Assembly: GCA_024711295.1 (NCBI GenBank)
Contig: JANJTB010000032.1
Coordinates: 62,001 to 126,000 of the forward strand
Source: a bacterium
GTDB lineage: Bacteria > Bacteroidota > Ignavibacteria > Kapaibacteriales > UBA2268
DNA: 64,000 nt
Direction: 5' to 3'
Positions 22,603 to 49,814 of the stretch are shown here, piece by piece. Under the pieces are notes generated by a model. That model did no database searches. It saw only the letters and a list, made by a program, of their open reading frames with translations, and had not been told where the DNA came from. Each line of letters opens with the position of its first letter. The stretch's first letter is position 1. Made by a program: the position numbers and the translations under genes.

Positions 22603-23562
22603 TTATTTGATTAGTTTATTAATATTCATACTTAAAGAGAACCTGTGCATGTTTGCATTTGAACCATATCTCGAAAATCCGTAATCAAAATTATAATCTT
22701 CGAACAACAATCCCAATCCACCAGAAAAACCCGACAAACCTTTATCAGATTCAGGTGCGATAAGCGTCCTTATTTGATTATCATAACCAACTCTAAGCTG
22801 GATTATTTTACCTAAATAAAGCTCACCACCGACAGTAAAACTTTTAAATTTATCAAAAAATCCATCTGTTTTATCAGCTAGATGATGGAAGGCAAAATTC
22901 ACCAATAATGGTAACCCCCTCAATCTGTGATTTACACCGATTCTAACATCAAGCGGCAATGATTCATTCTGGTCTGATATCTTAGTAATTTGCGTTCCTG
23001 CATGTAATACTGACACTCCAAGGTTTGTCCTGCCATCTTTCAATTTATATAGAATACCCGCATCTACCGCTATAGCAGAAGTAGATACCTGCTCAATACC
23101 CACAAAAATATACTTAAGTGTTACACCATAGTACAAATTAGAATCGAGCTCATCTGAATAGCTGACACCGAAAGTCAAATCATTAGCTCCGAATGAGCCT
23201 CTGTTTCTATTACCTAAGTAGTCGGCATAATCAAAACTGCCATAACTAGTGAATCCTATATTCGCTGCAAGTGTACCACTACCTTCGAGCTCGTGGATGT
23301 AATTAATATTACCTGAATTGATATCCAAAACGTGCTTAAGGAATGTTACTGATGCCTGTCTGTTTTCGACTGTTGAAATTGTTGCAGGGTTAAAATACAA
23401 TGCTGTCGGGTCGTCAGTAACAGTCATAAATGCATTTGATAATCCTGCAGACCTTGCACTGGATATATACCTGAGGAAACTAAAGGGTGTATCAACTGCA
23501 AATATCATAGTGCTTGATGCAATAAACAATAAGAATGCTATGATAATTTTTTTCATATTCAT
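22603..23562 (-). CDS. PorV/PorQ-like outer-membrane beta-barrel protein
   Basis: The protein has 319 residues. After a signal peptide (1-22) it begins FSFLRYISSARSAGLSNAFMTVTDDPTALYFNPAT, the opening shared by PorV/PorQ and FadL-like barrels. Alternating beta strands follow through to the C-terminal ...MHRFSLSMNINKLIK. In Bacteroidetes PorV and PorQ act in type IX secretion, shuttling or holding cargo at the cell surface. PorQ-like is the better fit by the middle region (SYGSFDYADYLGN), but I cannot exclude a general barrel of the UPF0164 kind. A T9SS sorting domain elsewhere in the window is consistent with this role. Confidence 0.65.
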   Translation of the reverse strand: MNMKKIIIAFLLFIASSTMIFAVDTPFSFLRYISSARSAGLSNAFMTVTDDPTALYFNPATISTVENRQASVTFLKHVLDINSGNINYIHELEGSGTLAANIGFTSYGSFDYADYLGNRNRGSFGANDLTFGVSYSDELDSNLYYGVTLKYIFVGIEQVSTSAIAVDAGILYKLKDGRTNLGVSVLHAGTQITKISDQNESLPLDVRIGVNHRLRGLPLLVNFAFHHLADKTDGFFDKFKSFTVGGELYLGKIIQLRVGYDNQIRTLIAPESDKGLSGFSGGLGLLFEDYNFDYGFSRYGSNANMHRFSLSMNINKLIK

Positions 23563-46456: not shown

Positions 46457-46597
46457 ATTTTTTTTCTATTTATATATTTTTTTCTCAAAATTATTTTTAT
46501 CACAGTATATAATTTTGATTATTCTCTCCTTTTTTTTATTCTATTATTCATTTGGAATACTTTTCGATTTGATTTTAGATTTAATTAATTATTTTTG

Positions 46598-47362
46598 ATG
46601 CTTATATTTTTCAATACATATATTATAAATAAATTGAACTCTATTAAATTTTATTACAAATCATTTAATTCAAGGATATTTGCATTAACAATATTTTGTT
46701 TTGTACTTATGACAATAATTGGTACTGTCACTCATGAACTGGGGCATTATGCAGCTGCATGTTATTTTAATTTAGAACCTAAATTATACCATGACAGAAT
46801 TACATATAATATAGATAATCTTTATGATAGAATTGATGAAATATACAAAAACAATAAATTTGAAATCCAAAATAATTTGAATTATCCTTCAAAGGAATTA
46901 TATTCAAAACTTTATGATGAACTCGATTTTGCTCCAATGATAATATCTGTCTGTGGTCCACTTCAAACTATCGCATTTGGCACATTAGCATTTATTATAC
47001 TTGTAATACGTAAGAAAATTAACACAGATACGTTTAGCAAATTTGATTATTTATTAGCTTATTTTTCCCTTTTTTGGTCAAGGGAAGTAATGATTTTATT
47101 CTTACCGCTCGCCGAGGGGTTTCTTTTTAATACATCATACTTTGGAGGTGATGAAGTTAGAATTTCAAGGCATTTTGGCTTGTGGGAAGGTACAGTGCCA
47201 ATTTTAACAGGATTAGTTGGTTTATATGTTTGCAGCAAAGTTGTGTTTTATTATATACCTGCAAGTCACCGCTCATCCTTTTTCACAGGAGGCATTACAG
47301 GGTCGGTTATCGGATATGCATTTTGGATGGAATTTCTCGGTCCGATACTATTTGTGAGATAG
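46598..47362 (+). CDS. Membrane metalloprotease-like protein with HELGH motif (M50-like)
   Basis: The protein has 254 residues from the ATG at 46598; a TTG 3 bases before is possible. A membrane helix at about 28-44 leads into THELGHYAAACYF at 45-57, whose HExxH would bind zinc within or at the membrane, as in site-2 proteases. Another helix follows at about 110-135, and SYFGGDEVRISRHFG (about 192) could supply a third ligand. C-terminal helices end GYAFWMEFLGPILFVR. A 55-residue insert after HELGH is rich in Tyr, Asn and Asp. Family is M50B-like at best, and the substrate is unknown. A lipoprotein gene follows by 5 bases. Confidence 0.6.
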   Translation: MLIFFNTYIINKLNSIKFYYKSFNSRIFALTIFCFVLMTIIGTVTHELGHYAAACYFNLEPKLYHDRITYNIDNLYDRIDEIYKNNKFEIQNNLNYPSKELYSKLYDELDFAPMIISVCGPLQTIAFGTLAFIILVIRKKINTDTFSKFDYLLAYFSLFWSREVMILFLPLAEGFLFNTSYFGGDEVRISRHFGLWEGTVPILTGLVGLYVCSKVVFYYIPASHRSSFFTGGITGSVIGYAFWMEFLGPILFVR

Positions 47363-47367
47363 TCATC

Positions 47368-48024
47368 ATGATAAAAATCTTATATATAGTTACAGCTATT
47401 GTAATTCTGTTATCTTGTAATAACAGGAAGGAGTATCATACCAAACAAAATGTGCTAATGAAATACGACACAGTTAATGTTTCAATAAAATTCTCAGACT
47501 CAATAATATCAAAAGGTCTTCCATTGACTTATTATGACAAAGAAAGTAACATTCAGTCATTCAATTACGACCTGAGCAAAAGGGAATTTCTTTTAGTTAA
47601 TATGTTTGTTTCAGAATATTTATGTTTAAATTCAAAATTATGGTTGCTAACCATATATTACAACAGACACTTTAAAGATAATGACTTAATTAGTTTTAAG
47701 GATATTTCAGCTTTGCAGTTATATACTATTAAACCAAACGGGAAATTATATCATAATTTTTATCTGAAAAAAGACAATTCGTTTCATGAACTATCGGATT
47801 TTGATTGCGAAACAAGTGGAATTTATTACAACTCAGTACGGTATTTTATACAAAATGAAATACATAATACAGACACAATTAGAAGTTCACTTATTAATTT
47901 CTATAACTCAGATTTGCTAAAGAATGACTCTGAATATAAAAACGTTAATAAAAAAAGCAAAGATTTTTTGATTTACAAAATTCGAAAGTATGGGAAGAAG
48001 AGATTTTTAAATTTAAAATCGTAA
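47368..48024 (+). CDS. Hypothetical lipoprotein
   Basis: The protein has 218 residues from the ATG at 47368. It begins MIKILYIVTAIVILLSCNN, a lipoprotein signal with Cys at about 17. An open frame extends far upstream in the overlapping frame of the previous gene but has no signal sequence, so the internal start is preferred. The mature part is rich in Tyr, Asn, Ser, Asp and Lys, with no domain I recognise. Spacing to the HELGH protein suggests one transcript. The next gene is convergent. Confidence 0.6.
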   Translation: MIKILYIVTAIVILLSCNNRKEYHTKQNVLMKYDTVNVSIKFSDSIISKGLPLTYYDKESNIQSFNYDLSKREFLLVNMFVSEYLCLNSKLWLLTIYYNRHFKDNDLISFKDISALQLYTIKPNGKLYHNFYLKKDNSFHELSDFDCETSGIYYNSVRYFIQNEIHNTDTIRSSLINFYNSDLLKNDSEYKNVNKKSKDFLIYKIRKYGKKRFLNLKS

Positions 48025-48038
48025 ACTTAACATAATTA

Positions 48039-48851
48039 TCAGTAAGAAAAGTGAAATCTGATAAATGGTAATATAATTAATGTATTATCTAAGTAGGGCT
48101 TAGCAAATGTATAATTACAATTAATTCCGACTACGGAATAAACAACATCATTTAATTCAATAACCGTACCTGCTCCAAGCATAAATCCATGATTTCTGGC
48201 ACTAATACTTTCAATATTGAATGAATCATCGCTTACACCAACATAAAACAGATTTTTGTTAATATAGCCTAATCTGATAAATGGATTAAAATTTTTGTAA
48301 TTAATAAAATTACACACTACTCCTGCGAAATAATTATATGATACAGCTTTTTTGTCAATATTCTCTGAAACCCGATATTTTGTTCCATTAAACCCAGTAT
48401 AATCATAAGAAACTAATGCTTTTGAATGATTACCACTCAGACTAATTCCGACATCAAACCTTAATCCATAATCTCCATTTTTTTTAATGTAGCCAAGTCC
48501 AAGTATCCCAGATAGTAAATAAGATTCATATAATGCTGATTCTAAACCAGTAAAAATCGAATATTTGTTATCAACCAAATAATCCAGTGTAATATTGACA
48601 TTGCTATTAATAAAATTCATTTCAGCTTGTTGAACATAATTATCAGTATTTAGGTTAATTGATTTATCCTTATTATAGGATAACCCAATAGCTAAGTCCA
48701 CTCTATTTGAGTCACCGGGTCTAACTACATTAACTGGCAAGCTGGCAGTTGGTGTAGTAAATTCTGCTTGATGAATAACCAATTTATCTGCTATACAGGA
48801 ATTTAGCAAAAACACAATTGATAAATATATTAGTATGAAAATGAGTTTCAT
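48039..48851 (-). CDS. Outer-membrane-type lipoprotein, member of a tandem pair
   Basis: The protein has 270 residues. The signal ends LLNSC at about 15-19, giving a probable acylated Cys. The mature part alternates hydrophobic and polar residues with many aromatic ends (YIKKNGDYGLRFDVGISLSG, FNPFIRLGYINKNLFYVG) and closes in IILPFIRFHFSY, a C-terminal pattern of outer-membrane beta barrels. No function is known. The gene upstream on the same strand (48878-49723) is a paralog broken by a stop codon, so the pair arose by tandem duplication. Confidence 0.6.
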   Translation of the reverse strand: MKLIFILIYLSIVFLLNSCIADKLVIHQAEFTTPTASLPVNVVRPGDSNRVDLAIGLSYNKDKSINLNTDNYVQQAEMNFINSNVNITLDYLVDNKYSIFTGLESALYESYLLSGILGLGYIKKNGDYGLRFDVGISLSGNHSKALVSYDYTGFNGTKYRVSENIDKKAVSYNYFAGVVCNFINYKNFNPFIRLGYINKNLFYVGVSDDSFNIESISARNHGFMLGAGTVIELNDVVYSVVGINCNYTFAKPYLDNTLIILPFIRFHFSY

Positions 48852-48877
48852 TGCTTTACTTTTTTTAAAATTTTATA

Positions 48878-49723
48878 TCATCTAGGAAATATTTTTGGAG
48901 TACTCATAGCATAATGCAACCTTATAAATGGTAAAAATATGTTTTGTTCGGCGAACTCTCTACCTGGAGGAACATAATTATAGTGTAATCCTAAAATAGC
49001 ATATATTCCTGGCAAAATATCTAATGTAACCCCACCTGAAAGGTTGAAATTGTGCATAACAACACCGGGATAAACATATTGGTTGTTTATATCATCTTTA
49101 ATTGTTAGCAAAGTGTTTGTGGAGTAAGCTGCTCTTAGAAAAAAATTGTAAAATCTGTCCTGATTAAGTGTATTTATTGTAAATGAACCGAACAAGCCTC
49201 TGGAGAACTGATAACCATTAATATAATCACGTACTAAGTAATCTGAAATTATTCCGCCGTAATGATAAGAGTAATCAGCTTCTATGTGATTGAAGTGTAG
49301 TCTGTAGCCAACATCAAATCTACCGGCTAATTTATTTACCCTTTTTATCAATCCAATTCCCACAATTCCTCCGAACAATCCGGATCTATCCCCTATTGCA
49401 GCATCTGCAGCAAGAAATACAGCGTATTAATTAGCTAAAACATAGTCAATCTGAGCATCAACTATGGTATTATTCAATGTTAGTCGTGTGTTATTGACAT
49501 CATTTGTCTGTTTGGCAATCAAAGTGAGGTTATTGCTTGTTGAGACAGAGGCAGAAAAGTCAATTCTGCTTGAATCATCTGCTCTTACAACATGTACCGG
49601 CAATATCGGCAAATATGATTCTAAATTTGCCATGTGAATTTTAGGTTCCCTGATACTCGTGCACGAAGTAAAGTAAAATGCTGAAATAGCAATCAGCAAA
49701 AATGAAAGAAATTTTGGAAGCAT
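48878..49723 (-). pseudogene. Paralog of the 48039-48851 lipoprotein interrupted by one in-frame TAA
   Basis: The reading frame from the ATG at 49723 encodes a lipoprotein signal (FYFTSCTS) and proceeds to ...IDYVLAN, stops at TAA (49427-49429, codon 99), and continues in the same frame YAVFLAADAAIGDRSGL to the end ...FIRLHYAMSTPKIFPR. Aligned with the intact neighbour (LDYLVDNKYSIF, Lys96 = AAA) the stop replaces one Lys codon, so a single A-to-T change explains it. No frameshift is seen. It could be a recent nonsense mutation, a phase-varying or read-through gene, or a sequencing error. Confidence 0.75.
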
Positions 49724-49814
49724 GCTTTTAGCCCTCAAAGAGATTTCAAATATTTATTTACAAATATAATAAATTATTTAATTATTCAACGTAAATTATT
49801 TACTTAATAAGTTA

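What the first reader, a model, noticed from the sequence alone, without database searches (positions are those of the whole stretch)
48878..49738. Tandem lipoprotein paralog broken by one TAA at a Lys codon
The frame is intact on both sides of TAA at 49427-49429, and the stop lines up with Lys96 (AAA) of the neighbour at 48039-48851. One base change therefore separates gene and pseudogene. The remainder shows no further damage, which suggests a recent event, a population polymorphism, read-through, or an assembly error.
Basis: seen in the sequence. Interest (0 to 1): 0.55.

Follow-up and report, generated by a model that had tools for sequence, protein, structure and literature searches.

The report
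Recently broken duplicate membrane-protein gene
One of two neighbouring copies of a gene for a predicted outer-membrane barrel protein is cut short by a single stop signal in an otherwise undamaged reading frame; this is most likely an ordinary, young loss-of-function mutation, unless it is a sequencing error.

Summary
On the minus strand, 49738-48878 is one reading frame interrupted only by TAA at 49427-49429. The stop sits in the column where both intact relatives, the neighbour at 48039-48851 and a gene in a same-genus genome (G001), have lysine. The halves before and after the stop each match the G001 protein separately (two-sequence E 7e-12 and 4e-33), without a frameshift. So the full-length frame is most simply the ancestral state. 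The pair is 31% identical: old, diverged paralogues; only the break looks young. The family is narrow: 2 of 123 genomes of the order, the window's own included. The neighbour is predicted to be an outer-membrane beta-barrel with a lipoprotein-like signal. The stop falls in a turn after the first strands, so the 98-residue product should be non-functional. Read-through or restart has no support: 33 of 48 ORFs examined end in TAA, no UAA-reading tRNA was seen among 39 (incomplete set), and the first ATG after the stop is 124 codons on. Best reading: an ordinary young pseudogene. Assembly error or strain polymorphism cannot be excluded without reads.

The parts
49427..49723 (-). 5' part of the broken gene: ATG at 49723, signal peptide with a lipobox-like FTSC (by eye), up to the in-frame TAA (98 residues).
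   Evidence: the stretch 49738-49430 matches the G001 homologue, two-sequence E 7e-12, 33% over 91 residues
49427..49429 (-). the single in-frame TAA, at a column where both intact relatives have Lys
48878..49426 (-). 3' part of the broken gene, 182 open codons, ends at TGA 48878-48880
   Evidence: matches the G001 homologue, two-sequence E 4e-33, 35% over 171 residues, no gaps
48039..48851 (-). intact downstream paralogue (270 aa), 26 bases after the broken gene; predicted barrel with N-terminal signal helix and a C-terminal strand ending in an aromatic residue

Best explanation
This is a young pseudogene. The genome carries two old, diverged tandem paralogues of a lineage-restricted predicted outer-membrane beta-barrel with a lipoprotein-like signal. 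The first of the pair has acquired one nonsense substitution at codon 99 (counted from ATG 49723), in the turn after the first strands. Translation should stop there, giving a 98-residue fragment with the signal, the linker and the first strands but without the remaining strands or the C-terminal strand; such a fragment should not fold or insert, so the copy has lost its function. The neighbour is intact. Shown: the stop, the intact frame on both sides, and an intact full-length relative in the same genus. Inferred: that the base is real, that the event is recent, and that function is lost.
For: Single stop, no frameshift. Each half matches the intact G001 protein separately. Lys in both intact relatives at the stop column. 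The G001 gene is the next listed ORF upstream of rpsL, a similar neighbourhood. The post-stop part shows no acceleration against the intact paralogue: 28 broken-copy-only changes against 30 neighbour-only changes. If neutral since the break, finding no second disablement bounds the divergence at roughly 1.4-7.4% per site (95%; indel-to-substitution ratio 0.2 to 0). Barrel model of the neighbour, mean pLDDT 78.7, with Lys96 between strands 83-93 and 97-106. UAA is an ordinary stop here: it ends 28 of the 39 ORFs I first chose and 33 of 48 with the nine left out.
Against: No reads, so the base itself is unverified. Before the stop the broken copy has more own changes than the neighbour (22 against 12), which could mean some earlier relaxation. 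The age bound assumes a simple Poisson model with every indel disabling. Loss of function is inferred from sequence; there are no expression data. The barrel model rests on 3 sequences, one of them the broken copy, and the five models vary (mean pLDDT 54.1 to 78.7). Only one intact homologue outside the window's genome was found.
Confidence: 0.78

Rival explanations
1. Consensus or assembly error: the true genome has a sense codon and both copies are functional.
For: A single substitution-type difference in an otherwise undamaged gene, not accelerated after the stop, is what an isolated error would look like. The assembly is a draft in 40 contigs. In a published check of one genome, 47 of 54 stop-bearing pseudogenes with traces were validated (PMC522871, passage seen), so errors are a minority but real.
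Against: The difference is a substitution, not the homopolymer indel that is the commonest error type (own knowledge). A scan of the window for similar interrupted frames gave no second clear case (mostly judged from coordinates).
Confidence: 0.16
2. The stop is read through (suppression or recoding), giving some full-length barrel.
For: The sequence after the stop still looks like the intact relatives and is not accelerated.
Against: TAA followed by T is, from general knowledge, an efficient terminator. No suppressor-type anticodon among 39 tRNAs, with the caveat that tRNA-His and tRNA-Thr(tgt) were not seen either and only 150 of 209 candidates were scored. RNA around and after the stop folds little better than shuffles (z -1.03; 31 of 200 shuffles at least as good). 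Both intact relatives have no stop there.
Confidence: 0.03
3. Split gene: the 3' part is translated separately by restart and the two pieces assemble.
For: An open 166-codon ORF with a TTG start follows the stop.
Against: The first start-type codon is a TTG 17 codons after the stop and the first ATG is 124 codons after it. The second piece begins inside the barrel and shows no export signal (by eye), so it should not reach the outer membrane.
Confidence: 0.02

Closest known systems
Young bacterial pseudogenes with a single inactivating mutation (Salmonella study, PMC2916853; listing, part of the abstract and passages seen)
   Same: One disablement in an otherwise intact frame; intact relative elsewhere.
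   Different: Here no strain comparison is available, so strain-specificity is untested. The genome is an unnamed species; the one named hit for a window protein was a MAG titled Bacteroidota bacterium (74% identity).
Monomeric outer-membrane beta-barrels (OpcA, OmpT/Pla, autotransporter translocator domains, Legionella porin I) by fold
   Same: Overall barrel fold of the intact neighbour: OpcA Z 15.9, rmsd 3.9 over 198; 9nh1_B Z 15.2, rmsd 5.8 over 202; a designed barrel (8uzl_B) Z 14.3, rmsd 2.1 over 137; OmpT (1i78_A) Z 12.9, rmsd 7.3 over 222.
   Different: Identity 14% or less in the rows cited; that a designed barrel ranks among them shows that the match is to the general architecture. 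No sequence match in PDB at E<=1, none above cut-off in Pfam or NCBIfam. No function is implied.

Membership tests
Single-disablement bacterial pseudogene | Frame disrupted relative to an intact homologue | tested here: met
Single-disablement bacterial pseudogene | Only one disabling lesion in the coding frame | tested here: met
   one internal TAA, no frameshift
Single-disablement bacterial pseudogene | No functional product | not testable with these tools
   needs expression or proteomics
Single-disablement bacterial pseudogene | Lesion present in the real DNA of the organism | not testable with these tools
   no reads; one genome per species
Programmed stop-codon read-through or reassigned UAA | Stop conserved at the position in homologues | tested here: not met
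   Lys in 2 of 2 intact relatives; only two relatives exist in what was searched
Programmed stop-codon read-through or reassigned UAA | UAA not used as an ordinary stop | tested here: not met
   33 of 48 window ORFs examined end in TAA
Programmed stop-codon read-through or reassigned UAA | A tRNA able to read UAA | tested here: inconclusive
   none among 39 tRNAs read, but the set is incomplete and 59 of 209 candidates were not scored
Outer-membrane beta-barrel (the intact neighbour) | Antiparallel barrel predicted | tested here: met
   prediction only, shallow alignment, varying models
Outer-membrane beta-barrel (the intact neighbour) | Sequence membership in a named barrel family | tested here: inconclusive
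   no match above cut-off
Lipoprotein | Lipobox before an N-terminal Cys | tested here: inconclusive
   LNSC, FTSC and LVSC by eye in the neighbour, the broken copy and G001; no signal-peptide predictor was run; weak match of the neighbour's N terminus to an NCBIfam lipoprotein model, E 0.11, below cut-off

The most novel reading that the evidence does not exclude
The stop is a tolerated or switchable polymorphism in a surface barrel pair: populations keep both intact and stopped forms of the first copy, so that one of two diverged barrels is off in part of the population.
Probability: 0.05. Interest if true: 0.4.

Novelty: new member of a known kind. Interest (0 to 1): 0.12.

Why it matters
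It matters little by itself: pseudogenes with a single lesion are well known in bacteria. It is a clear case for annotation (two ORF fragments that are one broken gene), and it points to a predicted barrel family found here in only two genomes of one genus, of which one paralogue may be expendable.

Tried and rejected
Genetic-code change: rejected. TAA ends 28 of 39 ORFs chosen. These were 38 of the 47 ORFs plus one; with the nine that I had left out (among them one antisense ORF and the 3' fragment of the broken gene) it is 33 of 48.

Chance open frame after the stop: rejected by homology and by about 1e-6 for composition alone.

Other same-frame runs separated by one stop in the window: 12 places passed the length (60 codons each side) and codon-usage limits. 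Five fall at stops of ORFs listed (15922, 24954, 41130, 42110, 59035). Four lie just before a listed ORF (22154, 23575, 34866, 46586). Two are minus-strand runs opposite plus-strand ORFs (5961, 6765). The twelfth is the finding. Of the eleven others I looked further at two: 23575 ends a thioesterase-like gene; 22154 ends a 143-residue ORF with its own ATG and no Pfam match. The other nine were judged from coordinates only.

Homologues elsewhere: no relative confirmed in genome contigs or viral contigs. 2 of 60 relatives, 2 of 54 family genomes and 2 of 123 order genomes, the window's own genome counted each time and the sets overlapping. G002, same genus, has no match there, nor by tblastn in its stretches around rpsL and addA (best E 0.63).

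Promoter-like sites: 33 against a mean of 26.5 (sd 4.6) in shuffles; terminator-like sites: 2 against 1.2; not informative. RNA around the stop is not special. Third-position differences between copies are 0.59-0.73, close to saturation, so no dN/dS was attempted. Dating against a closer relative was not possible: none was found.

Full report
Observation. On the minus strand the frame 49738-48878 is open except for TAA at 49427-49429 and its natural end TGA at 48878-48880. The likely start is ATG at 49723, so the product up to the stop is 98 residues with a signal peptide and a lipobox-like FTSC (by eye). After the stop 182 codons are open; at the same base composition the chance of this is about 1e-6. 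Codon usage favours this frame over the two others of its strand in both halves. One opposite-strand frame also scores well, above the true frame in the N half and below it in the C half, as it does for the intact relatives, so composition alone does not settle the strand.

The full-length frame is most simply the ancestral state. A same-genus genome, G001, has one intact homologue (291 aa), the next listed ORF upstream of rpsL. In the window the pair also lies upstream of rpsL, with two plus-strand ORFs (46595-47362 and 47182-48024) between. The part before the stop and the part after it each match the G001 protein separately: 33% over 91 residues, E 7e-12, and 35% over 171 residues without gaps, E 4e-33; these E-values are for single two-sequence comparisons. 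At the stop column both the G001 protein and the window neighbour have lysine. They use different lysine codons, so a single substitution is the simplest account but not proven.

Age of duplication and of the break. The two window copies are 31% identical, and they are 34% and 35% identical to the G001 protein. The three are nearly equidistant, so I infer that the duplication is about as old as the split from G001 or older; with three sequences the tree cannot be rooted, and transfer of one copy from elsewhere is not excluded. The break is younger: there is no second lesion, and the post-stop part has 28 changes of its own against 30 in the intact neighbour (gap columns left out). Before the stop the broken copy has more own changes (22 against 12), a result that leans the other way. 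If the copy evolved neutrally after the break, absence of a second stop or indel bounds the divergence at about 1.4-7.4% per site, depending on the indel rate assumed.

What the protein is. The neighbour, modelled from a three-row alignment, is a beta-barrel with an N-terminal signal helix (best mean pLDDT 78.7, pTM 0.68; the five models range from 54.1 to 78.7). The best fold matches are outer-membrane barrels and one designed barrel: OpcA Z 15.9 (rmsd 3.9 over 198 residues), Legionella porin I Z 15.2 (5.8 over 202), the designed 8uzl_B Z 14.3 (2.1 over 137), OmpT/Pla around Z 13. No sequence family matches above cut-off. Lys96 of the neighbour, the column of the stop, lies in the turn between strands 83-93 and 97-106. 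The truncated product therefore lacks most of the barrel and its last strand, which in outer-membrane proteins carries the assembly signal (general knowledge).

Alternatives. UAA is the commonest stop in the window: 28 of 39 chosen ORFs, 33 of 48 with those left out. No UAA-reading tRNA was seen among 39 tRNAs, but the set lacks His and one Thr tRNA and 59 of 209 candidates were not scored. The RNA around and after the stop folds little better than shuffles (z -1.03). Restart is unlikely: the first start-type codon is TTG, 17 codons on, the first ATG 124 codons on, and the second piece shows no export signal. The consequence for the downstream neighbour is open: it starts 26 bases after the broken gene, so if the two share a transcript, premature termination could reduce its expression (inference).

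Known context. In a Salmonella study pseudogenes with one inactivating mutation are taken as the youngest, and most pseudogenes are strain-specific (PMC2916853, abstract passage and text passages). In one genome, 47 of 54 stop-bearing pseudogenes with traces were validated by base quality (PMC522871, passage). Nothing found here departs from this.

Verdict. The remaining uncertainty, real mutation against error or polymorphism, needs reads or further strains.

Noticed in passing
48039-49738: The barrel-like family is very narrow: 2 of 123 genomes of the order have a match, both in one genus, the window's own included; the third held genome of that genus (G002) has none.
   Followed up: yes
46595-48024: Two plus-strand ORFs stand between the barrel pair and rpsL; the first has a weak Peptidase M50 match (E 0.006, below cut-off) and holds HELGH. 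G001 has its homologue beside rpsL without them. The M50-like protein has matches in 6 of 40 genomes searched, the own genome included, and none in G001 or G002.
   Followed up: partly
47182-48024: The listed ORF start is probably too early: an internal Met begins a lipoprotein-like signal (MIKILYIVTAIVILLSC), and the ORF overlaps the end of the M50-like ORF.
   Followed up: no
22603-23562: PorV-like protein (Pfam PF19572, 29.2 bits against cut-off 27), a type IX secretion component by name.
   Followed up: no
whole genome G000: Among 39 tRNAs read, none for His and none with Thr anticodon tgt; an assembly gap or one of the 59 unscored candidates may explain it.
   Followed up: no
49679-49698: A terminator-like hairpin on the minus strand near the 5' end of the broken gene; the scan finds about as many in shuffled sequence (2 against 1.2).
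   Followed up: no
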